Part shown: one piece after another, positions 4,120-61,400 of the stretch
How positions within the stretch are numbered: position 1 is the first letter of the stretch
How the letters are laid out: every line of letters begins with the position of its first letter
Assembly (NCBI GenBank): GCA_003693705.1
Contig: RBZT01000978.1
Location: 1-64,000, forward strand
DNA from: Polymyxa betae
Lineage: Eukaryota; Endomyxa; Phytomyxea; Plasmodiophorida; Plasmodiophoridae
Direction of reading: 5' to 3'
DNA: 64,000 nt
Program-made: the position numbers and the translations under genes
Notes under the pieces: generated by a model
Seen by the model: only the letters and a program-made list of their open reading frames with translations
Told to the model about the DNA's origin: nothing
The model's database searches: none

Positions 4120-4519
4120 CAGTTCTTAACAATGAACTTTCATAGACATCAATGATATCGGAAATAGAATTCCATGGAATAATCAAATAGAATCGATCTA
4201 CAGTCGAATGATGCTTGTCAATCATGTCCTGATATTAGATACAATCTTATATGAGTTCATGTATTTCAATTTCATATTGGAAATGAAGTGAGAGATATGA
4301 AGACAAGTGTATAACTATAAGTTTATCTATACATGAATGTGTATAATATATTATTATCGTACAGATCTATATAGAACATAGTATATATAGAGTCCAGATT
4401 GCATGTAATTGCATGCCTTGAGTAGTACTAATAGATCATGTCCAATGTACATCATACTATTACATGACTAATAGATCATTATTGAGTACCCAGTGTGTAT
4501 AACCCTCATCTTTACTATC

Positions 4520-5801
4520 ATGAACTTGTCCTATCTGCTTGTCTTGTCACTTTCTATTCTCTCATCATATTCGATATCAGAATCATGGAGTCCTGCTATA
4601 GATCTACAATCTCGAGCTATCATTAAGAATCTCTATCAGCTGGCAGATCTAGCTCAGATTGAGATCCAGAAGCATGCACCTAATGACAACCTTGTGGATC
4701 AGATAGATGAGATTGAGGAGCAGATCGAGACTGAATGTCAGCAGATCGAGGATGTCTATACCAATGATATAGGTAAAGCTCAGGAACAGCTCAATGAATA
4801 TCAGCAAGATCTAGATCTCGTACAAGATCAATTATCTGATCAGAATACCAAGATTACATCTTTACATAATCAAATAACTGATCTGACACAACAAAATCAA
4901 GATCTTACATCTAAACAAGGACAAATTCAAACAGATCTGGATACATTACAATCTCAATTACAACATTCTATTGAACAATTAGAACAATTGAATAAGAAAT
5001 TTACTGATCAGATTGCTGCAGATACCAAGGGTATCTCAATGGTTAACGATTTCATTATTCTGATCAAGACGCCAAATTCAAATCCAGATCTGGAATCGAC
5101 ATGGAATCAGATTCTAAAAGTATTGAGTTCTAATCCAGCTAATGATATTCAGGCTCGATTAGGCAAGATTCAAGCTGATATTGATAAATATCGTGTTCAA
5201 GGTGCCAAAGAACGTCAAGATACCAAGTCAAGATTATTGAATTCAGCTCGACAATTGACAAATGATTTACAGAAAGATGTTACTAATCAGCAGAACACAC
5301 AAAAGAGTACAAATCAGAATCATGCACAGCAACAGACCAAATTGCAGAATGATATAGAATCACAATCGGATTTATTGGAAACTATTAGTGAACAATTAGA
5401 AGATCTCGGTGCACAGATTCAGGAATTGAATAGTGATTTAAAGGATGTACAAGACAATCTGAATGAAATTACTGGTGAAGGTCATGATCTAGAAGTAGAT
5501 ATATCTGAGATTAAGAATGGAATTACTGAACTTGAATTAAATCATAAATCTCATCAAGATACATGTTTTCAATATGAGAATCAACTTGATACCATACGTC
5601 ATTATCTAAAGGTAAGATCTGTATCTATATAATCATTATAATATTGATATATTTCAGACTCATCCACCTAATGCTCTACAGCAATCATGTAAACCAGGTG
5701 ATCAAGATTGTCCACTATGTCTATATGATTATCATTGTCCTAATGGATTACAATGTTCCAAGTTTGCTATCTGCTATAATGCTACAATAAGCAAGACCTG
5801 A
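4520..5801 (+). CDS. Secreted coiled-coil protein with six-cysteine C-terminal tail
   Basis: The ATG at 4,520 opens a signal peptide (MNLSYLLVLSLSILSSYS). Exon 1 ends at 5,611, a 46-nt intron follows (GTAAGA to TTTCAG, 5,612-5,657), and exon 2 ends at the TGA at 5,799-5,801. The mature protein, about 390 residues, is almost entirely heptad-like and very rich in Gln, Asp, Leu and Ile, so a long coiled coil is expected. The second exon adds a compact tail with six cysteines (spacing C-x6-C-x2-C-x5-C-x5-C-x5-C), which suggests a disulfide-bonded knob. No catalytic motif is seen. Such a rod-plus-knob layout would suit a cell-surface or wall protein, but the role is inferred only. No homologous family is recognised. 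Confidence 0.7.
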
Positions 5802-6680: not shown

Positions 6681-9361
6681 ATGGCATGCTGGTCCCGGTC
6701 GTGCACGCCCTCGCCTAGTTGTTATACTGTCTATATACGTGATAGATTGAGTCGATATTCAGAACATAGATGGTGGTTGATATCAATGACATTAATAACA
6801 TTAATATCACTCTATATAGATGATATTCAACAATATTACTTTACTAAATCATCAGATACAATATTCCAGGTAATATCAACATATATATTTATTATATATC
6901 TAGTCGAATTAATTCTATTATGTCTTGTACAAGCACATTATCCATTATCATTATTCTTCTTTCTAGATTTAATATCAACATTAGCTATATTTCCACATAC
7001 TTCATTCATGCCACAAGCATTATTAGGTGATGCATTCCGTTCTAATAGTTCAACAACTACAAATTTCAATCTAATGCGTGCTGCACGTGCAACTCGTGCT
7101 GGTACTCGTGCTTCACGTATATTACGTATTAGTCGTATTATTCGTATATTACGTTTAGCGAAATTATCCAAGATTGTTGTACAACGCTTACATAAGAAAT
7201 CGTCACCTACATTTAATACGAAATCAAGATATCCTCATCATAATACTGATATTGTACATTCTATCGCAACTCCATCACATACGTCGAGCAGTCATACTGG
7301 CCCGCCACTGCATCCTCAATATGGTGGAGATCAATCACGTGTTGGTGCCCGTTTAGCAGATCTAACAGCACAACGTTTAGCTGTAATGGTATTATCAATG
7401 TTATTTATAATTCCATTAATATCATATCATGATGATATACAAGCACCATTAGTTGCTTTAGATCAGATTATACAATTAAGTAGAAATCAATCAGTATCAT
7501 TACAACATGCTGCACTTCAATTTACTGAATTTCAAGATCGACATGGAGTTCAATCGTGGACTGTATTAGCTTTAAGATTACAGAGTCCAGATGCACAACA
7601 ATATTATTATGAATCTGAAGATCTTCAACTATACAGATCTAATGAGATATCTGTATATCAATATGATGATCAGAATGAAGTAGTATTTTCTATACAAGCT
7701 TTCATGCAGAATCGATCTCTATATTCTATATATCAAACAACATTTATTATCATGTTAATGGGTATTGCAGCATTGGTATTTCTTCATGATGCTGAGCATC
7801 TAATCATACGTCCTATTGAACGTATGACAAGGGTTATAGATCGATTACGTAGTAATCCATTGGCTAAGAATCAACATAGATCTGGTACTGAATCAGAACC
7901 TGAGACATTAGAGACTGCTATGCTGTAAGAATATCTCTTTAAATCATATTCAGACATCTAATCATGATTATAGAGAACATACATTGGAGAAATTAACTGG
8001 ATTATTACAGATTGGATTTGGAGAAGCTGGATCAGCGATGATACAGAAGAATATTAATGCAAATGGCGAATTAAATGCATTAGTCAATGGTGAACGTGTT
8101 CTGGCTATATTCGGGTTCTGTCATATTCGTGGATTTCAAGATATGAATGGACAACTTCATGAGAATATCATGCTGTTTGTTAATGAAATAGCCGAGATTG
8201 TACATCGACAGGTTCATGAATCTGGTGGTGCTGTTAATCGTAATCTTGGAGAGACTTTTGTCCTGGTCTGGAAGATCCCTCAGGTTCTCTTATATAATCA
8301 ATATGATGCATGAATGTAATATTGATATAACAGATAGTACGAGCTGATAGAATGGAATGGATATTAGAACATGATCCTCAAGGAATACATCCAGATACAC
8401 AATTATCTTCAATTGAACATCAAGCATTACAAGATGCACAACAGACTGCTGCTCATGCATTAGCTGCATTTATTCGTGTTATCTATCATTGCTCTAATCC
8501 ATCTCCACAATTACAGCAATTACTTAATACTTCCAACAACGTAACCACCTCCTTTCTGTTCTCTCAATCAAATTCTGTTCAATGTATTACTTATGTTGGT
8601 TATTTCAATGTGATATTGAATATTAAGGTGGATTTATGTATTCAGCAATCAACAACAGAAGGTGTGTCGGTTGGTCTTGGATTACATGTTGGATGGGCTA
8701 TTGAAGGTGCTATTGGATCTCGATTCAAGATAGATGCATCATATCTATCACCAAATGTGAATATGGCAGCCCGATTAATGGCTGCGACAAAGCAATATCG
8801 TGTACCATTACTATTTAGTAAGGAATTCTGGTATATAAACATGTCTCATATTTACATGTTCATATCTGACATTTATATAGGTCGATATTACCATTATCAG
8901 CTCGAAATCGATGTCGTCAATTAGATCGTGTAGCAGTGAAAGGCAGTAATAAACCAATAGGTTTGTATACATTCGATTTGAATACGTCATTACCATCACG
9001 ATCATCACGATCATCATCAAAATCATCAATGGCTCTCATCTCTATGACCAAATCTGCCATTGAACGACGACGACGTGAACATCGTAATAAGGCCAAGACC
9101 AGGCCTGTAGACTTTGACAATGATAAATTGCTGAACTCGTTGCAGAATGGGGTCATTGTGAAAGCCTTCCGTGAGAATCATGAAGAAGGTCTAGCTGCAT
9201 ATCTGCAAGGTGATTGGGCTAAGGCTATCAAGCTATTCGAGATGGCGTTGCGATTTAAACCATCAGATGGTCCAACTGATAATCTGATCAAGTATATTCG
9301 AGATTCGGGTGGTCATGCTCCTGAATATTGGTCAGGATATCGACCTCTATCTCAAAAATAA
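6681..9361 (+). CDS. Voltage-sensor / extracellular-loop / class III nucleotide cyclase fusion
   Basis: Exons 6,681-7,924, 7,974-8,283, 8,334-8,830 and 8,881-9,361 join in frame to about 843 residues. Residues 31-105 form three hydrophobic segments (S1-S3-like). Residues 133-161 are an S4-like helix with Arg/Lys at nearly every third position (about ten charges). No pore loop follows. Instead there is a helix at about 232-249, a roughly 100-residue outside segment, a helix at about 353-371 and a HAMP-like linker with RPIERM. The cyclase domain starts around 416 (IGFGEAG) and includes the substrate-site motif SPNVNMAARL. Both metal-binding Asp positions differ: FCHIRGF has His465 and LGETF has Glu508. 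The C-terminal 100 residues (DGPTDNL, SGYRPL) match the tail usual in protist cyclases with ion-channel-like N-termini. Residues encoded at 8,541-8,645 may be an unspliced in-frame intron. Converges on the kinesin gene with a 15-bp gap. Confidence 0.85.
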
Positions 9362-9376
9362 ATCTATTTCTACATA

Positions 9377-12300
9377 TTATTTATTTACTAGTGATGGGAT
9401 ATCTGTAGTAGGTGGTCGTGGAGATACTGATGAACTTCGAGAATGTACAAGTATAGGAGATCTCTTCCCAGAACTTGTACCAGATACAGAATCGTATTCT
9501 ATGACATTCTTCTGAAACCCTAACAATGCTTTCGATAGGGCTAGTTCAGCTGACAGATCATTATTCTCAGAGTTGAACATTTCGATCTCATTACGTAATT
9601 GTGCCAGCTGATCCAGATAACATTGATGAATGAGATCATCGTTTAACGTCATTGATAGCATAATTGTCTTACCTTGACACTATGCGCCGTATCAGATCGG
9701 ATCTTATCACGTTTTAGTTCATTAGCAGCTCTTCTAGCAGATATCTTGGTATTCTGCAGATCAGTACGTAGATCTGACATCTAAACATGGGTCCAGCATG
9801 ACCTGATCAGTTACCAGAATAGCACTAAAAGTTCATGTTTAAGCTGACCTGTTGCGATGATCTCTCAATCTGTAACTCCATCTCAGATTGTCTCTTTTTT
9901 GAAGCAATGAGATCTTGCTCTTTACAGTCTAACAAGAGCTGCAGCTGATCACGCTTACGTATTGCTTCCTAGAAATCATTATTGTTCATCAATAGGGTAA
10001 AGCAGCTCAGAAACTATGTCTGACATCAAGTTCCAATCTGATCCGATCCATGTCATTTGTTAATTGATCATGATCAAACTGAAGTTGAGTGAGGTTGTTA
10101 TCTGATTGCTCATATCGATGTTTTAAATCTTGAAGTTGATCTTGCATCTGAATAATCTGATCCTGATCCAAGTTCTGTTTCTGTGCCAGCCGATGTTGCA
10201 ATTCCTGAATTCGTGCATGACATAAATCCAATTCGCGACTTTTTTCAGTCATTCGACTGTCCACTGCCTCTTTATATTGTTGTAGCTCCTATAGCACGGA
10301 TCATATTACACATCATGACGATTAGAATGCCGACCTTGACTTCATGACGTTTCTTATCAAGATCATGTTCATATTGATCAATACGTTTCTCATCGGTTGC
10401 TAACTGACTGCGAACCTGTTTTAATCGATCACGTAACTCTTGAAGATCTCGATCATGATCTGCTGCTTGTGATGTCTTTTCATCTATCAGTAATTGAACA
10501 CGTTGTTGTAATGTCATCTCCGATTTATTTAGCAACATCCTGTTATTGAAAGCCCCATTATAAACCTGGAATCATGTATAATGTAGATATACCGATCTGT
10601 CTCCGATTGTTTCAATTGATTTTGAAGATCATCATAACGTTGTCTTTGTGTTTCATATCGATCACGAATAGTGTCGTATGCGATCATAATCTCATCATTA
10701 CGTAATTCCAATAGCCTGAGCACACAAATACACAGATCAATACGTGAACAGCCAGAGCAGCCAACATCAACGAACGTATATTTGGACTGAAGTTCAGTCA
10801 ATCGACCACTCAGGGATTGCAGCTGACGACTAAGCTCATTACTGGTAGCTTCATGTTCTTTGCTAAGACCTATACAGGAATAAGACAGATGATACCTGGT
10901 TAGGGATCAGACCTAGATATTACATTGTACTACATTTTCATGGCTCTCCTTAATTTCACTGAACCGCTGATCCGTATCAGACTTGATACGTTGAAGGTCA
11001 GAATGGCATGAATGATATTGATCTAGATAATCTTGTGATTGTTGACGTAACGTTCGTACTTCAATCTGCAATTGATCACGTTCATGAACCAGATCTTGTT
11101 CATGAACATGAATAGATTGCAGTTGATCGCGCCATTCTTCATGTTTCTTACGTAGCGATTTTATCTGATCAGATTGCTCATCATGTGTTTGTCGTAATTG
11201 ATGTTCCAGTTCTCTGGAGCACTCTAACTGCTGCATTAAATCAGATTCACGTTGTCGTAATTGTTTCAGATCATCTTGTAATGCAAGTTGACATTCTTCA
11301 CGAGCTTGTAGATCATGACGTAGATCCGCCTCCCGACTAGTTGATTCTCGTATCTGACCTTCCAGATAACATTTACGTTCATCATAACTTTCCATCTCAT
11401 TACGTAAATCAGATTCATGTTTAATCAGCGCCAGTATCTCAGCCTTCAGACCATGTTCACGCTCTTCACGAACTTGTATATCTTGATATAGATCAGCCAC
11501 ACGATTTGATAATTGCATGACCTGATCTTTCAATTGATAATTCTGAGCTTCCATCTGAATACGCAAATCTGATTCACGTTTAGTTAAGGATGAGATCTCC
11601 CCCTTCAGATCATGTTCACGTTGTTCGCGATTCTGAATGTCATGACGTAGATCAGCTTCGCGATTACATAACTGCATAATCTGATTCTCCAGATGACAAT
11701 TCTGAGTTTCCATTTCATTACGTAGATTTGATTCACGTTTAGTCAGTGCTGATATCTCCTCCATTAGGTCATGTTCACGTTGTTCACGATCTTGTATGTC
11801 ATGACGTAGACCAACCTCACGATCAGACAGCTGTTTGATCTGCTCTTCTAGATGCCGATTTTGACCTTCCAGTTCATTTCGTAGGTTTGATTCACGTTTT
11901 GTCAGGGCTGATATCTCCTCCTTTAGGTCATGTTCACGTTGTTCACAAACTTGTATGTCATGACGCAGACCAACCTCACGATCAGACAGCTGTTTGATCT
12001 GCTCTTCTGAATGCCGATCCTGAGCTTCCAACTCACTTCGTAGAATTGATTCACGCTTAGTCAGGGCTGCTATCTTCTCGGTTAAATCATGTTCGCGCTC
12101 ATCACGAATTTGTACATCATGACGTAGATCAGATTCAGTCTGACGTAATAATTGAACAATTTCCTGATTATCTGAATGACATTGTTCGAGTTCCAGCTGA
12201 CGGTCATGCAGCTGTTCGATCTCTGTATTCAACTTGATTTCAGCAGAACGTAATGTTCGTATCTGGATTTCTTGATGTTGCTGTTCCAGTAGAAGTCGCT

Positions 12301-15300
12301 GCTCACGATCGGACGCTAACTCTAATTGCTGTTCTAGACGTAATGTTGTCTCTTGTAGGTCAGCTACACGTTGCTGCTCAGTAGTAAGTTGATATCTAAG
12401 ATCAGTAATCTGATCAGATAGCGTAGCTGATGTTGCTACTAACGATGTGTTCATAGATGTAATTCTCTCTGCTTCATTCTTAAAATCACATATTTCTCTC
12501 TCTAATCTTGATTGATCTCGTAGTAGTATTTCACATTGACATTGATAACGATCACATTGTTCCTTAACCGTATAGTGTTTCTCTCTAGATACCCGCTTAA
12601 AATCACAAATGCGATTTCTTAGCTCCTGAATATCATTGACAAGTTTGTTAATAAACTGATCTGTGAATTATGGGTATCAGTACTGCTTATAAAGCATTTA
12701 AGCACTGAAGTAGACCTCTGCATAGTATAGCTGAATCATAATGCCCCATCTGTTCCTGATAATGTCTATGTATATCAAGTAGGATGCACATATGATTATC
12801 AGAAGGCGCAGCTAGCCTTTGAGCAGAAAGCAGATCTCGCACCAGTCCATGATCATAGAGTAATAGGTGGTTATGACGTTGTATTGGATCTAGATCGAGA
12901 GCAGTTATTGTATGATGTATACGTCGCAATAGAGATTGTCGTCTATTGGTATATTTGACCTATAGATGATAGAGAAGTGAGTAACACAACCATATGTTAC
13001 ATATCTCATTACTAACATGTAATGAATTAATGATACAGTTCATAGCATATACTAGATCATCATACTGTTCTATAACATTATCGCATTCATTATCACCACC
13101 AACTAATTCATACTCCTCCATTATCATCCTTCTGTCATTCATCTCATCTTTCATCTGATCCAAGATCTTTTCACGACTTTCTAGCCTGTATCACGTGCTT
13201 AAAATCGACATAACAAACGACCTCGAGCTCCCGCACCGTCTTTGCAGCATGGTCGAGTACTGCAATAAAGTCGTACAGGCCCGCTGCAGTTCATCATTGA
13301 GCTGTTTACATCTGTAATTGATACATTTGGTTAGATGTGGATCTTAACAAATGAATGCCCAATTACTGTTGCTGATTATGTAGATACTGATTATATTGTT
13401 TGATCAATACATTAATAATAGGAAGTGCATGATCTGGTATATGATCATGTTCTAAATCACTAGAAATCTGCAATCCAGAACTGAATGATTTCGTTATTGC
13501 ATTCAATACATCGATTGTATCATGCAGAGAAGTTTTTAACAGATCATGTTGATGTTGAATATGTTCTTGATCTATATACAGGCCCAGTGTTAATCCACAT
13601 TGCATGAAATGCAAGAAACACATAAATACGAGACCTTGGCGTAATAGATCTAATTGAGCAAAGTTGTCATCTTGACCTATACGATATTAGTTAACGATTT
13701 GCCATTGTTGATGAGTTTTTATAAACCTGATTTCTGATCCATTGAAACTGATATCGATGAGGAATTGCTCTCTGATAGATGCTCCTTGATACGAGGACTT
13801 CCGATTTTTGTGCTAGATATATTGACAGAATATTGATTATGAATGGTCTTGGCTAATGCAGCGAATTTCAACGAACTAATAGTCCTGAAATCAATGATGT
13901 CATATTGTTGAGAATTGGGATTGATATAATATAATACTGACTAACTCATGAATATTATGTTTAGCAGCAGATGCACATACACAAATTAATGTTCGAGAAT
14001 TCCCTCCTAATGATGGCTGTAATATTCGTGTTAACCGTGAATTTCGATATGGTATATGGCTAGACCCTAAGCAGACATCAACATATGATTGTGTTGCATC
14101 AGATATAAAATGGATTAAGACCTTGGGCTAAATGTGATACAACTGAAGTCAACGAATAGAGGGACTTATTGATATTTCCACCTTCCTTCTGTCTTACTAA
14201 TGCATCAACTGATTTATCAGTCGAATATTTCGCTATTCGTTCTGATCTGAATAAGAATATCAACCTAGACAGTATATGATCTAAATAGTCATGTCATTTA
14301 CCCAGCAAGATCGACGACATTAAGAACAGATCTCCGCCTGATTTCTGTATCATCGTGTTGACGTCTATGGCATACTTCTAACTCAATACTCATGATTGAA
14401 TGACTTCGGCTGCTTTCATGATTCCAAACAGTCGCTGCTACACTACGGTTTTGAGCACCACGTTTAAGTAAGTTATGAATCTGATTATGCAGGCCGTTAA
14501 ATATCGATATTAAACATAGACCTGTCACCTAATTACTTCTTCAATGTTCGTCACGTTCTTCTTTTCCAATCTTTCAATATACACTCCATCGCTGTTTTCT
14601 CTGATTCGCAACGATTCACCTTTCCGTGTTTTTGAGGCTAAAAGATCATAGACCTCCCTGTGCACATTCAGTGAAATAAACATATGGGTCACATACTGAG
14701 TACAAACTCGTTATAAATCTCAAAATATGAGACCAGAAGCTGATATGTGCGATTGGATAAATCTGGTTGGTTAATTTTTTGTAATATATCTTGAACTAAC
14801 ATTGTAGATACACCAGGACATGTAGATGTGCCTGTTAATGTAAATGTCTTTCCACTACCTGTAATCCTGAATGTAAACTTTAAGATAACAGAGCAGAACA
14901 TTGATTACCGGTCTGTCCATATGTCATAATGGTCCCTTAATAACATTAGTATTCTGCATCTATTAAATGTATACAGTATATGATTACCATTAACTCCAGA
15001 TAGAAATGAATCTAATAATGGTGTGACATTACATTTATATAACTCACTTGTACTAGTTCCTGCATCAAATACATGATCGAAATTATACCTCAGACCGGCT
15101 TCAGACTGTTCAAGATCGTCCCCGATTTCATCGGAATCAATGCAGATTATAGATGTAGCATCATGTGGAACTTGCCATGATGGTTGTGATTGTGGTGAAT
15201 CCAGAGGACGTACACGAACTACAACCTGAATATTCTCTGATGTACTATTCAGACTTGATAATGATGTCTGACGACGAATATGGGCTGGTTTTGGTGTTTG

Positions 15301-47040: not shown

Positions 47041-48434
47041 TCACACCTGTGATGAAAGCTTGCCAGCACGATTCCTGTGCGGTATTCGACGTTCCATCCA
47101 GTAAACAGGGAACGCGAACATCACAATGACAAGAACTAGCTGGGATATGTTCCAAGCGGTAACACTGAGATGAAATAATGACTGAAATACCAGCCCATGT
47201 GCTAAGAATATGATTGAATTGATAAGAAACAGAACACCGATCAGCATTCCGAAGTTCTGATAGCCAAAATCGACACTCATTACGAAGAAAATCCAGGAGA
47301 AGAAGCAACTTCGACTAACAGGGTACAGCAACAGTGCAGTTAGCAATAACCCGATGCTATTGACGCAGAGAAGAAGTGCAATAGAATATCCTAATAAAAG
47401 AGACATTACCAGGACTGCAGACTTCACAATCCCGAAACGATCAATGACAGCGCCAAAGAGAGGGTTTATAATCCTAAACATATTTAGAAAAGCAAGTAAG
47501 AAAAAAAAACAGCTGGAATCATACACGCCAGTTAATAGAAGCAGTTGGCTTAAATCGGTGTAGGACTGCACAGTTTCGATACTGGCAGCCACCCCAAGTG
47601 CATTGCTAATTTGTTCTTTAGTTAGGACCAGGAAACTGTTCAGATAAAACAAAATGACGGGTAGAAACAGGGCCATGCCGAAATAGCTCGAAGTGAACAT
47701 CTGAGATCCTAGCGATTTTCGGCTCTCGAGCGCTCTCGCTCCACTTGTAATACAGAACTTGAATATGGAAGGTTGAACCTTGTCATCAATTGAGACAGAT
47801 TTGGTTCCGAACGCTTGCATAGGCCAAACCACAAAGGAGGCAATCGCAAGAGCCAGCTGTAAGCTAGCCAGTATGATTAGCAGAATCTGGAACGAGAAAC
47901 CCAAACCATAAAGATTTTTGATGAGGAGAAATAGAAGACAGGAGACCTGAAATGCCCCGATTTGCAATGAGACGACTAATCCTCGATTGTTTGGAAACAG
48001 CGCTGCCAGATGGATTGTTGAAACCTGAGTTCCAGGGCCACATAATCCAATCAGAGTACAGGCAACATACAGAGCCTGAAAATATTGCAATCCAAACGAT
48101 AGGATGAATGTTCCAAAACCCAGTAATGACATGCAAATCCCAGAGCATCGTTTAGGGCCAACTGCATCTAGTAAAAGACCACATAGAAACTGTCCTAGGG
48201 CTACAGCCATGATACCTGTCTGCCCTAATATCATAAAATTGATTTCCTTATGCATATTCTCCTCTTCTAAGATGATTCTGAGAGAGGCAAAGCCATACAT
48301 CTGGCATTATTAAGAAACCAGTGATTGAAGATTAGACTTCGACAGACCATTCCGCTGGACATAGCAATCTGAAGTAGAGATAACAATACAAGCGGCCATC
48401 GTAACTTTTCGTAATTAATATTCAATAAAGACAT
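47041..48434 (-). CDS. Major facilitator superfamily carrier, SLC43/FMP42-like
   Basis: Exon 1 (48,434-48,348, 29 codons) and the long exon 2 (48,300-47,041) join in phase 0 across a 47-nt intron, giving about 448 residues with about twelve hydrophobic spans. The N-terminus SSGMMYGFASLRIILEEEN resembles the start of the fungal FMP42 and animal SLC43 (LAT3/4) carriers, where a first helix is followed by a G-x-G-x-W/Y segment and an acidic loop. The loop GLLLDAVGPKRCSG after helix 2 matches the MFS A-motif (G-x-x-x-D-x-x-G-x-K/R). A cytosolic loop of about 60 residues separates the two halves, and the C-terminal half repeats the motif as GAVIDRFGIVKS. The predicted role is transport of amino acids or another small solute; substrate not determinable. 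Confidence 0.85.
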
Positions 48435-49042
48435 ATCGGCTTGAGAAAAAGAAAAGTGAAAAGTGAAAGAAAGCAGATCAGGGTCGCGTCATATACAAAG
48501 GACACATGAGAATTGACCTGCGCAGTAGTATAGTTAGTCAATTAATCAATTGATCTCATCCTTTATTAGTTATTGAGTCTTCGCCATACAGAATCGTAGC
48601 CGAACTGGCATTTAAATAAGTGGTGACGTTGATGTGATGATACTGTCCCAGTAGAGCTCGCTTTTCGCTGGTGTGCCAATTGCAATGTCAGAAGGACCTA
48701 TTGTTTGCGGTGATGATACTTTTGCATGTTCTAATAATATGTTGCTAGTCACGCTTGTTGAGAGGATGTCATGCAAGTTCGTTGTATGTACAAGATCCCT
48801 CCGACCTAGCTATTCTTGTCTATGTAAGACACACCTGTGATACAGATTAGTATCACGTAGCTGTCTTGTGGTAGTTCAGATTGACGTCTGATCAGAGGAC
48901 GTCGCCACCTCAATGGTGTCGGATTTCGTGCGAGCCGAGAGAGAATGAGGTCGCGTCCTGTGACCAGAACGATAGATCTCCATTACGATATTGCGATAGC
49001 AAATCAGATGAATCGGTTGTTGCGTCCTGCATTTTTCAGACC
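48435..49042. other. Intergenic and 5' leader region
   Basis: Between the divergent MFS and channel genes, and presumably carrying both promoters. The channel's reading frame is open upstream to 48,881 without an ATG, so an extra N-terminal coding exon there is possible. Nothing else recognised. Confidence 0.5.
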
Positions 49043-51139
49043 ATGACCACACGTGATCCCAACAATCTCGAATCACCATTGCTAACTGCTCACAATGATA
49101 ACAGGAAGTTCACTGTAGCGGCACTATGGCTGAAAGATGCCATGGGTTTTCGATCAGTGAATTTGAAAACATTGGATCCACCATCGCTGATTTACCTTAA
49201 CATCGATAGGAATTCGGCACTACAATTTCTATACTCACGACCTTTTCAAATTGTTCTTTTGATGGCTGTTTGCTTACATTTGATTGTACCTGTGGTTCCT
49301 GCTATCATGTTTCCATTCAAGCTGTTATGTATTATTCTTGTCTATGCAACACGTGAAGCGCTTCTGCTTTATGTTCGCCCTTTTCGGCTGCGAGTCGTTG
49401 CGAGAATATTGGCAATATTGACCATGCTCTACCTAACTATCCAGTCGGAAATTTCCACCATCTCACCTCATGACGCTGCCATGGTATGTGGCGTATTTGC
49501 TCCTCTATTTTTAATCGATGTGTTTCCTTCATTACGGTTTATGGCAACCGCTATGATTACAGCCAGTATTAGTGTCTTTCCTATTGTCATTTCTATCGCC
49601 TGTCTCGTGATTCTCTTCGGCTGTGTTGGGCATCTGTTCTTTTCAGGACATTTTTTCGGTCTCGCAGCAAATAACAACTTTCGAGACATGACCACATCGA
49701 TATTCTCAATGTTGTATTTAATGACAACTGTTAACTTCCCGGATATTATGATGCCAAATTATCATCAGAAGGGTGTCGTATTCGTATTTTTTGGCCTTTA
49801 TTTGGTGCTAACACTGCTCATGTTCGCATGGTTGTTAGCTTCCGTGTATGGTTCGTACATAGATATTCGGCTGAAACAGCTAACGGGCATGGTTTTAAAT
49901 CAGAAAGCATCTTTGGTGCGCGTATTCGATCGTATTGCTACCAATGCTGAGACATTAAGCCGGGAAGATTTCGAATGCCTGATGTCATACTATCGTCCAG
50001 ATCTAAAAGAACATTATGCTCAGGCTTTGTATACGTTAATGGATCATGATGAAGTTGGATATATATCGAAACGATGCTGGCTTGATCACGCCAATAGATG
50101 TCTTGATATTACAATTCAACAGCAGAAACATTCTGATACTAAATTCCGCCATCCGATTCACATTCTGGCTACAAGTGTTCCAGTTCTGTTAATTCGTGCA
50201 TTCGTGATCGCAATTGATGCCTGGCTACTCTTTGAACGTGCTCTGATTCCTGTATCAGAAGCACATCTGAAATCCGTTCAACTTTCCATTCGTCTTTTAC
50301 AGGGAGTCTTCTTGTTCGAGGCTATCGCGAAAATAATTTTACTTCGCGGTTTGATTCTGCAGAACAAGTTCCAGAAAATCGACATTGCTGTTATATTGGT
50401 ATCATCTGTGGGAATACTTGATTTCAAATATCACGAATATTTTCAGTTAGTCGCCATCGGGCGGGTGTTCAGCCTGATACCACTTTTCGAAAAAACGCAT
50501 TCACTGAAAAGAATATCACTTCTTCTGTCAGGCATGTTGGCCATGACTCTTTCAGTTTTTTATGTGTTTGCTTATGTCGGGGCGTTATTGTTTGCTGATA
50601 AGGTCACTGATACTCCCGAACTGAGAGCCAAAATAATGGCTGCTGATAAAGATGTTGCCAACATTTGGATTGGAGCACATTATTTCGACTTGAACTTCAA
50701 CACGTTTGCCGACGGACTCGTCATGTTGTTCGTTCTGGCTATTGTCAATAACTGGCATGTTATCACAAACGGGTATCTGATTCCGTTTCAATTTAATCGC
50801 AGCTGAATTTCTTTCTCTAGCTACATAATATTAACTGATTCCATCAACACCAGTATCTTCTTCATCAGCTTCTATTTCGTAGCGGTCGTGCTTGTATTGA
50901 ACATTGCCACAGGTCTCATTCTGGAAGAATTCATGCTGAATCGAATTCCTCGTTCCCAGTGGCAAAGCCGTCTTCTGCAAATATTAACGAAACAATTTGC
51001 AGACGTCCCAGTGACCGATTGGGTGGTCAGAAAACCAGTACATCTCCAGCTCATGCTCATGGATCATATCGATTCCGAATTGTCCACTCTAAGTCATTTC
51101 AAAACTCTGTTTCGGACAACACATTTAATGCCTGTTTAA
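49043..51139 (+). CDS. Two-pore cation channel (TPC family)
   Basis: TPCs are endolysosomal or vacuolar Na+/Ca2+ channels made of two six-helix domains. The first ATG in frame is at 49,043. Domain I has S1-S6 and the filter helix/filter SMLYLMTTVNFPDIMMP, matching the TPC pattern T-x-N-x-P-D. Domain II ends with the second filter LAIVNNWHVITNG, the diagnostic TPC VNNWHV motif. An 83-nt intron after 50,770 then joins the S6 segment FFISFYFVAVVLVLNIATGLILEEF, and the gene stops at 51,139. Between the domains lies an EF-hand-like loop (DHDEVGYISKRCW) that lacks the usual acidic residue at position 12, so it is probably a weak or lost calcium site. About 680 residues, complete. Confidence 0.88.
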
Positions 51140-54080: not shown

Positions 54081-55751
54081 TTATGGAGCTGGTTTTGAGT
54101 GAGGTCGTGATTTGGTCTTGGTCGATGTCAAGAACGGAGCATGAAACTCGTCGCTATCAGAATCTTCATCAGTATTAGGTTCCCCATCGCTCCAGGCTGA
54201 CGTTGGTGGTATTAGAGCTGGTGTCGCCTCCACCAATAACACATCCTCATCAATGGCGGTTGCATCAAAATCATTCCTGACATGAACATCGTTGATGAAT
54301 GTATTCTGTTGTATCATCCATTGTTGCAGAATACGACACACTTGTTCTTCCATGAATGCAAGATGATGTACTAATGTTGTCTCTGTCACAGGTGTTATTG
54401 TCAGTGGATCCTCAACATCTCCAAACAATTTCAATATTTTCCCAATACCAGTCCTTAGGTTCGCCATGGTTCTGCCTTGATCAGCAGCCTTATCATTCAA
54501 TTCTGCTAGATCGTGCTGTACTGATGCTAACCTCTCACCAAGCCTTCCAATAGCTGATTGACTTACAAGCCGCTCACGTAGTCGCCCGTCGGTAACACTG
54601 CCTGCATCGCCATGGATTTTGGCGTCAGATAATGCATCAGCTTGCAGACGAATTTCGTCGAGTTTATCATCGAGGTCATCAATATCGTCATTTAGAAGAT
54701 TCACGATCTGAAATTTTTGGAAGTTCCTGTCTTCACTTGTCTCAAAGACGGCAATGAGATCATCAAATGTCTCAACACCAATTGCCTGCCGAAGTCGATC
54801 AAACTGGTGACGATATGCATCAACTCTAGCTCTTGTCATTCTGATACAAGCTTTATCTTTAGCAATATCCCATGCTCCTGCTGTTAGCACCGTTCGCAAT
54901 TCAGATTCTTGTGCTTGAGCCCATTTCTCTTTCTCTTTCACGAGTTTACGATCACTTAACAATCCGATGAAGCCAACAATCTTATCGTTGTAAGACACGA
55001 GACGACCCAGTTCACGCCATTGGTCTTGGAACTGACGATGTTCTCGATCAGCCGTATATTTTAATTCGGCAACCAGAGCTGTTGAAGCATCTCTTGTTGC
55101 CGCTAAAGCATTGGTTCGTTCAACAACTTGAGTTATTTGTGTGACATGTTTGTTGGTTTGACGAAGTATGTGACCAATCATACGTTCCACCATAATACGA
55201 TCAACACGAAGTTCATGAATAGTTTGACGCATGCTTCGATTTGAGGTTATTCGTCTATTGAAATCAATTCGTGCCCGATGTAACCGATGCTCCAAAATCT
55301 GGAATTGTTTCAGATCCCGATCTCGTGCTTCCTTGCTAGCATAAATGCCACCCTCCGCCTTCCTTCTCTCCATAATACCAAAATAGAACTCTTCAGCTAA
55401 ACGTTCCAATCTATCAAGACGTTCTTGTTTATCTTGTGCGACAGCATTAAACCATTCCTCTTGAGTATCATCAGTCTCATTTGTTTCAATCTCAGCGCAA
55501 GCTTTCTGTTCTGTCAGCCATGCAAGACTTGCTGAGTCGCTTGTCAGCTGCTTCTGCATTTTGTTATTGGCTGATTTCATCTTTTCGATTTGTGAATGCA
55601 TGAGTCGGCTGACAGAAGGTGTGAAATTAATCAATGGGACGCTGCGAGACTCGAGCTGTCGTGTCTTCTTGACAAGACCTTCGAGTCCATCTGTAACAGC
55701 TTTTGTCGTGTCATCTTCATAATTAAGTGTCTTATCTCGGAATAAGCCCAT
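54081..55751 (-). CDS. Outer dynein arm docking complex protein, CCDC63/CCDC114 (ODA1/DC2)-like
   Basis: A single large exon; the first ATG in frame is at 55,751 (MGLFRDKTLNYEDDTTKAV), and an acceptor-like site just upstream suggests a 5' UTR intron or a short extra exon. Almost the whole 555-residue protein is coiled coil. The segment LEHRLHRARIDFNRRITSN, MRQTIHELRVDRIMVERM, VVERTNALAATRDASTALV, FQDQWRELGRLVSYNDKI follows the block order of CCDC63/CCDC114 and Chlamydomonas DC2, which fix outer dynein arms to doublet microtubules. The C-terminus is acidic then basic (DEDSDSDEFHAPFLTSTKTK). It implies a motile axoneme with outer arms. Downstream of, and on the same strand as, IFT57. Confidence 0.75.
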   Translation of the reverse strand: MGLFRDKTLNYEDDTTKAVTDGLEGLVKKTRQLESRSVPLINFTPSVSRLMHSQIEKMKSANNKMQKQLTSDSASLAWLTEQKACAEIETNETDDTQEEWFNAVAQDKQERLDRLERLAEEFYFGIMERRKAEGGIYASKEARDRDLKQFQILEHRLHRARIDFNRRITSNRSMRQTIHELRVDRIMVERMIGHILRQTNKHVTQITQVVERTNALAATRDASTALVAELKYTADREHRQFQDQWRELGRLVSYNDKIVGFIGLLSDRKLVKEKEKWAQAQESELRTVLTAGAWDIAKDKACIRMTRARVDAYRHQFDRLRQAIGVETFDDLIAVFETSEDRNFQKFQIVNLLNDDIDDLDDKLDEIRLQADALSDAKIHGDAGSVTDGRLRERLVSQSAIGRLGERLASVQHDLAELNDKAADQGRTMANLRTGIGKILKLFGDVEDPLTITPVTETTLVHHLAFMEEQVCRILQQWMIQQNTFINDVHVRNDFDATAIDEDVLLVEATPALIPPTSAWSDGEPNTDEDSDSDEFHAPFLTSTKTKSRPHSKPAP

Positions 55752-56091
55752 GGTTGCGATTAGCAAGCTTTGGACCCTGTCAATATGGCGAAATTACAAG
55801 GTACTGTACTCAATACGATCGATTCTGGCTCTACCCTCTTGATAAATTATGCAACATTTATGGACTTCGCTGATGATGTTAATCGAGCCAAAAGTTGAAG
55901 TGTTTTCTCATCAACAGCTGTTAAAATTTGGTACTGTTGGCAAATCAGGGGAAGAGTCAGTCGTATCCGTTCTTCCAACGAGCGCTACCAGCATGGCTAG
56001 CCTGAAACCGGAGCCGAATAATGTGAGATTAGAATTCTACAGAATATTGAATGTTGATTTCAATCTGGCTTGTTTGAAAATCTGCAATATA

Positions 56092-58484: not shown

Positions 58485-61400
58485 TCAAGCATAAACAGAT
58501 GACACGATATTCTCGAATTCCTTTTGGTGGACACTAGCGAAACCAGTCGCAGGCGCAGCAGCAGTTGGTCGCCCGGCGTATTTCTAGAAATGAAGTCAGT
58601 ACAAAAAGGACCAAATAAAACCGGATTACAATTTGCTGCCGTCCGATGGAGCGGAAAGCAGTTTGTAAGCGAGGCTTGACGTAACTCCAAGCACCCATAT
58701 TCTTGGGCTCCTCTTGAGCCCAAATGATCTCCGCTTGTTGGTATCGATTAGCCTCATCAAGAACCAAGTCGAAAGGGAACGGGGAAATTTGTTCGATTCT
58801 GCAAAGGGCGACATCCGTTCTAGATTCCCCTTGCTCAAGCAGATCGTAATAAACCTTTCAACAAAAGCCATTAGAATATACGAAAGACAAACTGAAACGC
58901 AATGGCAAACCTTTCCTGAGCAAAATACAAGTTTCTTAACAGCCTCTGGATTCTGGACAATTTGTGGACGGGATTCTTCGATGACCCTTCTAAACGTAGA
59001 ATCACCTGACATCTCCTCTAGTGTTGATACGGCTCTCTTGTGACGAAGCAGGGATTTGGGATTCATCACAATCAGCGGTTTGCGGAACTGACGATGAATT
59101 TGTCGTCGGAGCACATGGAAATAATTTGCAGGAGTTGAGGGCATCACGACCTGCCAGTTGTTTTGTTGGATCTGTTTTCTCAGCTCGTCCTTCATCTCAG
59201 GAACTGTATCTTCGTCTTCAGCAGACATTTGAAGAAATCGTTCCAATCGTGCAGAACTATGTTCAGGGCCCTGGCCTTCATATCCATGAGGTAAGAGAAT
59301 TACCAAACCAGATTGCCTAAGCCATTTTGCTTCTCCACAGGAAATAAACTGATCGAAAATAATTTGAGCACCTACAACCTCATAGGTAAGAGAGTAGAGC
59401 AGTAAAATCTGACCGTTGACCGTTTGCGAAATCTCCAAATTGAGCTTCCCATAACACCAATGCGTTAGGATTCTCAAGTGAATACCCCAACTCAAAGCCA
59501 AGAACTCCAAATTCACTCAAACTGGAATTGGAAACCGAAAAAGCGGCCTGGTTCGGAGATAAGTTCGCTAAGGGGATATAAGGCTGACGATTGCCATCGA
59601 TTTGGTCATGGAGCACAGCATGACGGTGAGAGAAAGTCCCACGCTCGACATCCTAGACACGCTATAAGAGAGGTGGGCAGTAAATGGCGGGCACATACCT
59701 GCCCACTCAAGCGCACATGACACTTTTCTAACAGAAGGCTACCGAATGCTAACGCCTCAGCAGTACCCCAGTCAAACCCTTGTTTAGTCTCAAACATTTT
59801 GGCTTTGGCATTGAGAATGTTTGAAAGTCGCCGGTGAATGTTGAAGTCTCCAGGAACAGAGCATAACCTGCAGAAAATAAACAAGATGTTCTTAAAAAAA
59901 ATGTCATTACTTCTGGCCGATATTTTCTAAATCAGAACCTGAGACTCCAGTACTCTGAGGCTGGGAATGTTGAGAAGACCTCAAGAAACCTTCCCAGTTA
60001 GACGATAGCCAGTCAGAGGCGACAGAAACTCGTTCACGTGACTGTTCAAATGCTTCATCGAGTTTCGTGCGTGCTCTGACAGATATCTAAACATGGTTCA
60101 GCAAAATAAACAATAGGAGAAACAAAATCGAACAGCATCGGCCTCATCAGCAGAAACAATGTTTCGAGTTTCCAAATTCTTTCTGTAAGTATCCAATACA
60201 GAGCTCATTTGGCCAATCTGACGGTACATCAGAGGCTGGGTGAACCTGAAAATGCTCAGTTTAATGATGGAGAGGACTTTCAATGCTTACATGGGTTCGT
60301 CAATTTCGTTATGACCGAACTTTCGGTAGCAAACCACGTCAATAACAACATCACGGCCAAATCTAAAAAAAAAAATGTTAAACTGGCAAGCGATTTAAGA
60401 GATAAACTACTTCTGGCGCCAGGCTGCAGCAAGCTGATGCACTCGCGTAACCGCCTCAACGTCGTTTCCATTCACATGAAAGACAGGAGCATTAAATGCT
60501 TTGGCTAAATCGCTGCAATAGGCAGATGAACGCGACCTACAGTAGTTACAAATTGAGAAATGATCCAAAGCAGAGCACAGAGATGTACTTGGTAGGGTCT
60601 GTGGTAAACCCAATTTGATTGTTGACAATGATGTGGATCGTGCCGCCAACAGAATAACTGGGCAGATCAGTAAAACCCATCGTTTCATAAACAACTCCTT
60701 GTCCAGCGAAAGCAGCGTCACCATGAAGAAGTAAGGGTAAGACTTTGGACTTGTCTAGAAATAAGTTAAGATAAACTTCTTAAAAAGAAGCAGAGTAACA
60801 ACCCATATTAAACTTATAGAATTGCTTGGCACGAGCTTTGCCCATAACAACAGGATTGACAGCTTCAAGATGAGAGGGATTTGCAAGTAAACTGAGATGG
60901 ACATTTCCACCGCCAATGACAGGCCGATTAAATGACATCCCTAAATGATACTTGACATCACCGCTTCCTGAGCCTGAATAAGATAAAAGAAATGGAGCAT
61001 AAATGTTTAAACCTTCAAATTCAGAAATTGAGCCGCCTCCAGAGAATTCAGCAAAGATCTGCTTAAGTGGTTTCCGAACAACGTTCGCAAGCACATTCAG
61101 ACGTCCTCGATGGGGCATTCCCATAACGACATCAGTTACCCCTAACATCAAATAAAATAAATTTTAGCGAGAAAAGAGCATTTAACCAAACCGTTATGAT
61201 GCGCATGGTCGATCAATTGCTTCATTCCAGGAATAACCGCCTCTGCACCTTCCAGGCCAAATCGTTTAGCCGTCGACCATTTGTTAGCCAAAAAACGCTC
61301 GAAATGATCCGCCCAGATCAAGCGATCCAAAATCCGCTCACTTTCCGACTTTGTGAATGCAAAGGGTTCGGCCAGCTCGATATTGTCGCGGATCCAGTTG

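What the first reader, a model, noticed from the sequence alone, without database searches (positions are those of the whole stretch)
6681..9361. Voltage-sensor cyclase without a pore and with both metal-binding Asp replaced
Seen: S1-S4-like helices with an unusually long arginine ladder (R133 to K161, near-perfect R-x-x-R), then helix, about 100-residue outside segment, helix, HAMP-like linker and a class III cyclase domain with the channel-cyclase signatures IGFGEAG and SPNVNMAARL. The first metal Asp (usual FCDIRNF) is His465 and the second (usual GDA/GDT) is Glu508. Known: class III cyclases need both Asp for two-metal catalysis, and fused channel-cyclases exist in protists. Inference: a voltage- and ligand-sensing protein that either uses altered metal chemistry, works as a regulatory pseudo-cyclase in a heterodimer, or signals by binding only.
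Basis: partly seen in the sequence, partly recalled or inferred. Interest (0 to 1): 0.85.

Follow-up and report, generated by a model that had tools for sequence, protein, structure and literature searches.

The report
Voltage-sensing cyclase missing its metal site
A protist, probably a relative of the clubroot organism, carries a membrane protein that joins a voltage sensor to a cyclic-nucleotide-making domain, but the two acidic residues that normally hold the catalytic metals are replaced while the rest of the domain is kept, so it probably signals without making the messenger by itself.

Summary
A five-exon gene (6681-9361, +) encodes 808 aa: voltage sensor S1-S4, two more membrane helices around a ~90-residue outer segment, a class III cyclase domain and a TPR-like tail. 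His465 and Glu508 stand where most relatives have the two metal Asp. It is the only copy found in this genome of the known protist 'adenylyl cyclase/ion channel fusion' family; the best match is a full-length Plasmodiophora brassicae protein (47%) that keeps both Asp. The long S4 ladder and lack of a pore loop between S5 and S6 are ordinary for the family. The metal-site loss is not: His occurs at site 1 in 0 of 224 relatives, and both Asp are replaced in 6 of 224. Of 71 conserved cyclase positions it departs where P. brassicae does not at three, two of them the metal Asp. The domain does not evolve detectably faster than the orthologue's and keeps Asn626, Arg630 and Asp617. I read it as a voltage-driven pseudo-cyclase. 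A related group shows the mirror image (metal Asp kept, Arg lost, S4 eroded in most), hinting at voltage-sensing heterodimers; that partner was not found in this genome.

The parts
6681..7924 (+). exon 1: residues 1-414 plus two bases (voltage sensor, S5, outer segment, S6, neck)
   Evidence: homology to P0001
6768..7202 (+). voltage-sensor domain, residues 30-174 (S1 30-53 with Asp48, S2 56-83 with Tyr73/Glu76, S3 91-106 with Asp96, S4 126-174 with R133-K161)
   Evidence: AlphaFold helices, conserved charges, structural match to channel and Ci-VSP voltage sensors
7338..7421 (+). fifth helix, taken as membrane helix, residues 220-247
7422..7694 (+). outer segment, residues 248-338: two helices and four strands in the model
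7695..7853 (+). sixth membrane helix and helical neck, residues 339-391
7925..7973 (+). intron 1 (49 nt)
7974..8283 (+). exon 2: start of cyclase domain, carries both replaced metal positions
8014..8031 (+). GFGEAG motif (residues 429-434), the GXG motif after helix 6 that was proposed as an atypical K+ pore in the family
   Evidence: PMC3283738 passage
8122..8124 (+). His465 (CAT) at the first metal Asp
8239..8241 (+). Arg504 at the base-selecting Lys; also Arg in P0001, P0002, P0179 and 8 other rows of 224
8251..8253 (+). Glu508 (GAG) at the second metal Asp
8284..8333 (+). intron 2 (50 nt)
8334..8540 (+). exon 3
8541..8645 (+). intron 3 (105 nt; an acceptor at 8627 would make it 87 nt)
8646..8830 (+). 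exon 4: GLHVGWAIEGAIGSRFKIDASYLSPNVNMAARL
8733..8735 (+). Asp617, base-selecting Asp, kept
8760..8774 (+). Asn626 and Arg630 of the NxxxR motif, kept
8831..8880 (+). intron 4 (50 nt)
8881..9361 (+). exon 5: end of cyclase domain and TPR-like tail (TPR_2 match at residues 749-777, 21.4 bits, under its cut-off of 27), stop at 9359-9361

Best explanation
The gene encodes the (probably phytomyxean) member of the known voltage-sensor/class III cyclase fusion family. In this lineage the cyclase domain has lost its two metal ligands while keeping its sequence otherwise, its NxxxR residues and its rate of change. Most likely the protein no longer makes cAMP as a homodimer and acts as a voltage-driven pseudo-cyclase that regulates rather than catalyses. 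Proposed steps: membrane potential moves S4 (inferred from conserved charges); S5, outer segment, S6 and the neck pass this to a dimeric cyclase domain (inferred from the models); the domain, which may still bind nucleotide, controls a partner or effector through its interface or the TPR-like tail (inferred, no partner shown).
For: Collinear homology over 98%. Asp at the first metal site in 210 of 224 and at the second in 203 of 224 relatives (recounted); none of 224, nor of 58 short fragments, has His at the first. Of 71 cyclase positions conserved in at least 90% of 221 rows, this protein departs where P. brassicae keeps the residue at 3: 465, 474 and 508; the chance that 3 random picks of 71 include both metal sites is 0.0012. 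The cyclase domain is the most conserved part against P. brassicae (67%, versus 44% for the voltage sensor, 35% for S5-outer-S6, 51% for the tail). Changes unique to this protein versus unique to P. brassicae, with P0002 as outgroup: 25 versus 19 in the cyclase domain, p 0.45, so no relaxation detected. Asp617, Asn626, Arg630 kept. Voltage-sensor charges D48, E76, D96 and the 10-charge ladder kept.
Against: No activity, expression or partner is shown. Glu at the second site occurs with an intact first Asp in 9 of 224 relatives, so Glu508 alone may be tolerated, and His can in principle bind metal. If the domain were purely regulatory, NxxxR would be free to drift; its retention could mean that the loss is recent or that the site is still used. 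At the 95% threshold neither metal site is in the conserved set, so the test works only at 90% and below. The rate test rests on 44 changes and cannot exclude mild relaxation.
Confidence: 0.55

Rival explanations
1. It is still an active cyclase that uses His465 and Glu508, perhaps with another metal (Mn2+, Zn2+ or Fe2+) or with a single metal.
For: No relaxation of the cyclase domain detected; NxxxR kept; Glu at site 2 recurs with Asp at site 1 in 9 of 224 relatives; His and Glu are both possible metal ligands (general knowledge).
Against: His at site 1 is found in none of 224 relatives and 58 fragments; the two Asp are described as critical for metal binding (PMC12264004 passages; for the class at large recalled).
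Confidence: 0.2
2. It is the NxxxR-supplying catalytic half of an obligate heterodimer whose metal-supplying partner is another kind of cyclase or a gene missing from the assembly.
For: It lacks metal ligands but keeps Asn626, Arg630 and Asp617, the residues that one protomer gives to the other's site. A related group of 11 proteins is the mirror image: metal Asp kept and Arg lost in 11 of 11, three or fewer of the first five S4 charges in 8 of 10 readable rows. Precedent: NeoR gives the Asp and lacks NxxxR, RGC1 gives NxxxR (PMC12264004 passages).
Against: A query with a member of that group finds only the window gene in the genome; the two patterns and the P. brassicae query give no second family member. 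Two of the genome's other cyclase genes carry two cyclase stretches in one reading frame and would not need it. Over the family, metal loss and Arg loss are not exclusive (both in 6 rows).
Confidence: 0.15
3. It is mainly an ion channel: the GFG motif after helix 6 forms a K+ pore and the cyclase domain only gates it.
For: The family was described as AC/K+ channel fusions with a GXG motif after helix 6, and a purified native Paramecium AC was reported to have K+ channel properties (PMC3283738 and PMC5746546 passages); the motif is kept here.
Against: In the P. brassicae model the motif lies between two helices just before the cyclase domain, with no further long hydrophobic helix after S6 (pLDDT there only about 58-77); channel activity of Plasmodium AC-alpha was reported as unconfirmed; [quoted passage not shown]
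Confidence: 0.05
4. Decaying gene or sequencing error.
For: Single assembly, no transcript evidence; the S5-outer-S6 part changes unusually fast (36 versus 11 unique changes, p 0.0003).
Against: No frameshift or stop in 2427 nt of coding sequence, splice signals canonical, no relaxation of the cyclase domain detected, departures at 90%-conserved cyclase positions not shared with P. brassicae limited to 3 of 71.
Confidence: 0.05

Closest known systems
Plasmodiophora brassicae 'guanylate cyclase domain-containing protein' (P0001, 812 aa)
   Same: Full-length relative with the same 10-charge S4 ladder, outer segment, cyclase domain, Arg at the Lys504 position and tail
   Different: Keeps Asp at both metal positions as well as NxxxR
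Adenylyl cyclase/K+ channel fusion family of Paramecium, Tetrahymena and Plasmodium (AC-alpha); Weber et al. 2004 not read, as reported in PMC3283738, PMC5746546 and PMC10651576 (passages)
   Same: Six predicted membrane helices with S4, GXG motif after helix 6, single C-terminal class III domain
   Different: AC-alpha is reported to have all canonical catalytic residues and cyclase activity; here both metal Asp are replaced
Phytophthora parasitica PPTG_13136/PPTG_13761 (PMC12223298, passages)
   Same: Voltage sensor plus guanylate cyclase domain, no pore helix region; PPTG_13136 seen mainly on one zoospore flagellum
   [quoted passage not shown] catalytic residues not compared here
NeoR/RGC1 heterodimeric rhodopsin-cyclases of chytrids (PMC12264004, passages)
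   Same: Works-like comparison: a sensor fused to a cyclase half, one subunit supplying metal Asp and the other NxxxR
   Different: Light sensor, guanylyl specificity, both subunits known and both still with the Asp pair; no homology outside the cyclase domain was looked for
Ci-VSP voltage-sensing phosphatase
   Different: Enzyme is a lipid phosphatase; no S5/S6-like helices or outer segment (recalled)

Membership tests
Voltage-sensor/class III cyclase fusion family (AC/ion channel fusions) | N-terminal S1-S4 with an S4 arginine ladder | tested here: met
   10 of 10 ladder sites charged; D48, E76, D96 kept
Voltage-sensor/class III cyclase fusion family (AC/ion channel fusions) | two further membrane helices and a GXG motif after helix 6 | tested here: met
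   helices 220-247 and 339-391, GFGEAG at 429-434; membrane insertion itself is inferred
Voltage-sensor/class III cyclase fusion family (AC/ion channel fusions) | collinear full-length sequence homology including the C-terminal tail | tested here: met
   98% coverage, 47% identity, E 1.7e-216 to P0001; about 30-34% over 96-99% to many others
Voltage-sensor/class III cyclase fusion family (AC/ion channel fusions) | K+ conductance | not testable with these tools
   needs electrophysiology
Catalytically competent class III nucleotide cyclase | class III cyclase sequence profile and fold | tested here: met
   PF00211 29.5 bits over cut-off 21.9; fold tested on the orthologue P0001 only, best match OaPAC, E 2.0e-9
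Catalytically competent class III nucleotide cyclase | two metal-binding Asp | tested here: not met
   His465 and Glu508
Catalytically competent class III nucleotide cyclase | NxxxR transition-state motif | tested here: met
   Asn626, Arg630
Catalytically competent class III nucleotide cyclase | adenine-selecting Lys/Asp pair | tested here: inconclusive
   Asp617 kept; Lys replaced by Arg504, as in 11 of 224 relatives including P0001, P0002 and P0179
Heterodimeric cyclase (NeoR/RGC type of arrangement) | a partner gene that supplies metal Asp | tested here: inconclusive
   no gene of the mirror group found; five other loci with cyclase domains exist, pairing untested

The most novel reading that the evidence does not exclude
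Around this gene lies a split voltage-sensing cyclase: one subunit type (window, P. brassicae, P0002, P0179) carries the full voltage sensor and NxxxR and is losing the metal Asp, the other (11 relatives of P0007/P0044 type) carries the metal Asp but has lost the Arg and, in most, much of the outer S4. They would be heterodimers with one sensing and one metal-donating half. In the window's lineage the sensing half has lost the last metal ligands and works with a different cyclase or as a pure voltage-gated regulator.
Probability: 0.2. Interest if true: 0.75.

Novelty: new variant of a known kind. Interest (0 to 1): 0.5.

Why it matters
Voltage-sensing cyclases have been studied in few protists, and whether they are channels, enzymes or both is still open. 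This gene and its relatives show that the enzyme half can lose its metal site repeatedly while the sensor stays, and that a related group has lost the complementary residue. That makes a clean test possible: do these proteins pair as sensing and metal-donating halves, and can a voltage sensor signal through a cyclase domain that makes no cyclic nucleotide?

Tried and rejected
Considered and rejected. (1) A private oddity of one gene: rejected, replacement of one or both metal Asp recurs (14 of 224 at site 1, 21 of 224 at site 2, both in 6 of 224); on a tree of 44 rows that I chose and enriched for such cases at least 5 changes at site 1, 7 at site 2 and 3 at the Arg are needed. (2) A His/Glu clade: rejected, the nearest relatives are Asp/Asp and Thr/Asp. 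(3) An unusually long S4: rejected. (4) Intact paralogue in the genome: not found (the P0001 query gave two further weak matches, E 0.19 on contig C30 and E 0.95 at the C500 cyclase). Limits: searches are exon by exon, only best candidates are scored, and the PF00211 search did not list the window gene itself, so intron-rich cyclases can be missed. (5) Strict mutual exclusion of metal loss and Arg loss: not true family-wide; 6 of the 14 rows without the first Asp also lack the Arg. (6) Eroded S4 as a general companion of Arg loss: not so; of 16 other rows with both Asp and no Arg most have 9 or 10 ladder charges. (7) HAMP domain: no Pfam match at E <= 1. (8) A known fold for the outer segment: the structure comparison of exon 1 was filled by voltage sensors (residues 15-174), so the outer segment is barely tested; Foldseek alone gave no match at E <= 0.001 for exon 1 (best 0.10, a NaV1.7 sensor chimera). 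(9) A PH domain in the L002 gene: the piece tried has no Pfam match. (10) Rfam and tRNA scans of the window: nothing. (11) A published account of Asp loss in this family: not met in ten library searches, which cover only openly licensed PMC papers and were not all aimed at this point.

Rows and choices: the 120 rows are the listed best of 984; the 224 are those 120 plus the 104 new ones among the 120 listed of 144 (609-1741 aa; not all complete, P0182 lacks the voltage sensor). The 58 fragments were tallied apart, 41 of them readable at site 2. For S4 of the mirror group P0182 is left out; P0185 and P0188 have alignment gaps there. Reference rows leave out the window, P0001, P0002 and P0179. 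Trees: one search used 52 rows of 121, one search used 44 of 225.

Full report
What is there. The interval holds one gene of five exons on the + strand. Three-frame translation and splice joining give 808 residues with four short GT-AG introns; only the acceptor of intron 3 is ambiguous (8627 or 8645). The first ATG after an in-frame stop is at 6681 and the protein ends at 9361 with LSQK, where the family consensus ends in LTEK. The genome is a 24.4-Mb assembly of 541 contigs. That is an inference from this gene alone.

What is ordinary. The S4 ladder is a family trait: ten R/K in S4 is the commonest count (97 of 224). I recognise no pore loop between S5 and S6 in the 18-row alignment (by eye). 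The family has been known as adenylyl cyclase/K+ channel fusions of Paramecium, Tetrahymena and Plasmodium, with a GXG motif after helix 6 (passages of PMC3283738; PMC5746546; PMC10651576). [quoted passage not shown] one was located mainly to a zoospore flagellum (PMC12223298 passages). The hits here extend the family to P. brassicae and, by the source names, to green algae (P0189, P0218); a liverwort protein (P0262) also matches over 97% but has no ion-transport domain listed.

What is not ordinary. In 224 relatives the first metal site is Asp in 210 and never His; the second is Asp in 203 and Glu in 13. Both are replaced in 6 of 224. In 58 short fragments the first is Asp in 48 and never His; four of them (P0126, P0144, P0150, P0151) have lost the first Asp and have Glu at the second. 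Across the 224, Glu at site 2 is commoner when Asp 1 is lost (4 of 14 against 9 of 210, Fisher p 0.005, which ignores relatedness). So loss of the metal site recurs in the family, and the window's His/Glu pair is its own version.

Is the loss specific? Of 71 cyclase-domain positions conserved in at least 90% of 221 relatives, the window departs at 10 and P. brassicae at 8. The window departs where P. brassicae keeps the residue at 3: 465, 474 and 508. Both metal sites among 3 random picks of 71 has probability 0.0012; thresholds of 85% and 80% give 0.0010 and 0.0007, but at 95% neither metal site is in the set and the test cannot be made. The domain is 67% identical to the orthologue, against 44% for the voltage sensor, 35% for S5-outer-S6 and 51% for the tail. 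With P0002 as outgroup, changes unique to the window against changes unique to P. brassicae are 25 and 19 in the cyclase domain (p 0.45), 18 and 15 in the voltage sensor (p 0.73), 6 and 9 in the tail (p 0.61), but 36 and 11 in S5-outer-S6 (p 0.0003); P0179 as outgroup gives the same picture. The cyclase domain therefore shows no sign of decay, and S5-outer-S6 is what changes fast.

The mirror group. A profile search from four relatives brought in P0179 and nine further proteins like P0007 and P0044. On the cyclase domain with the six catalytic columns removed, window and P. brassicae form a clade (100/97), P0002 and P0179 join it (100/99), and the 11 P0007-like rows form their own clade (100/99); the join of the two groups is not resolved there. 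A quick full-length tree joins window, P0001 and P0002 with P0007 and P0044 (SH-aLRT 99). The 11 rows all keep both metal Asp and have Ala or Thr for Arg630. In the 10 with readable S4 the first five ladder sites carry 2, 1, 1, 1, 5, 3, 2, 1, 4 and 1 charges, against 5 in each of the window's four-member group and in 135 of 210 other relatives (33 of those 210 have three or fewer); two of the 10 have alignment gaps there. P0002 and P0179 keep Arg and have Thr at the first Asp. This looks like two complementary halves. The published NeoR/RGC1 heterodimer works that way: NeoR supplies the metal Asp and lacks NxxxR, RGC1 supplies the base-selecting residues and has NxxxR, and removing a metal Asp of RGC1 at the non-catalytic site raised activity ninefold (PMC12264004 passages). 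Against it: elsewhere in the family the two losses are not exclusive (6 rows have both), other Arg-less rows mostly have 9 or 10 ladder charges, P. brassicae keeps everything, and I could not test whether the two groups occur in the same organisms.

The genome. Queries with the window protein, P0001 and P0007 find only the window gene of this family; P0007 finds it at E 7.7e-38, so a true P0007-like gene should have been seen if assembled (P0001 also gave two weak matches, E 0.19 and 0.95). The degenerate KIDASYLSP pattern occurs once, in the window, and the FGFCDIR pattern nowhere; an intron inside a motif would hide it. PF00211 finds five other loci. Three of them (L003/L004, L005, L006/L007) have the metal motifs ALFADVSGFT or VLFADISGYT and FAGDA intact by eye; two of these three were scanned and have two cyclase stretches in one reading frame. 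I call them soluble-AC-like from recall of that arrangement. L001 has a PH domain and Asn at its first metal position; L002 has a cyclase domain only as far as scanned. Cyclic-nucleotide-binding domains (35 matches, 27 marked over the cut-off) and class I phosphodiesterases (16 matches) are present, counted by exon. Cyclic nucleotide signalling thus has other likely sources.

Mechanism and verdict. Shown by sequence: gene structure, homology, voltage-sensor signature, replacement of both metal Asp, retention of NxxxR and Asp617, no detected relaxation of the cyclase domain, no second family gene found. Inferred: the protein senses voltage and forms a cyclase-domain dimer that is not an autonomous cyclase. 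I give 0.55 to a regulatory voltage-driven pseudo-cyclase, 0.15 to the NxxxR half of a catalytic heterodimer, 0.2 to altered-metal catalysis, 0.05 to a primary channel role and 0.05 to decay or error. It is a new variant of a known kind.

Noticed in passing
window 7338-7835 (residues 220-385): S5, outer segment and S6 have about three times as many unique changes here as in P. brassicae (36 versus 11, p 0.0003), while voltage sensor, cyclase domain and tail do not differ: the outer segment may have changed its ligand or partner.
   Followed up: partly
L001 (G000:C345:144670-145341, -): A PH-domain cyclase in the same genome reads FTNIQDS, with Asn at its first metal position, and by eye keeps the second Asp and NxxxR.
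   Followed up: partly
L002 (G000:C272:168916-169416, -): Another cyclase locus reads VHLTSR, with His for the Asn of NxxxR; its first metal exon was not located.
   Followed up: no
L003/L004, L005, L006/L007: Three loci with intact metal motifs in the first cyclase domain, likely sources of cyclic nucleotide; two scanned ones have two cyclase stretches in one frame.
   Followed up: partly
P0007, P0044, P0180-P0188: Related group with both metal Asp kept, NxxxR Arg lost in 11 of 11 and three or fewer of the first five S4 charges in 8 of 10 readable rows.
   Followed up: partly
window 54081-55766 (-): ORF with an ODAD1 coiled-coil match (E 2.9e-30); ODAD1 belongs to outer dynein arm docking (recalled), which suggests a flagellated organism.
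   Followed up: no
window 48881-50806 (+): 641-residue ORF with an ion transport domain (E 1e-19), a separate channel-like gene in the same window.
   Followed up: no
window 4493-5632 (+) and 10913-12454 (-): Long ORFs on both sides of the gene that look like coiled coils; the first has weak matches to many coiled-coil families, the second none, and the second shows near-repeats by eye.
   Followed up: no
window 47041-48300 (-) and 58626-59516 (-): MFS transporter ORF, and an ORF matching the transketolase pyrimidine-binding domain and the 2-oxoglutarate dehydrogenase C-terminus.
   Followed up: no
P0202, P0262: Relatives with extra listed domains: P0202 carries PF14890 (an intein family, recalled), P0262 from Riccia fluitans carries a phosphodiesterase domain PF00233 with the cyclase.
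   Followed up: no
P0205, P0215, P0230, P0232, P0233, P0243, P0263, P0270, P0272: Nine relatives keep the first metal Asp but have Glu at the second; worth an activity test as natural Asp-to-Glu variants.
   Followed up: no
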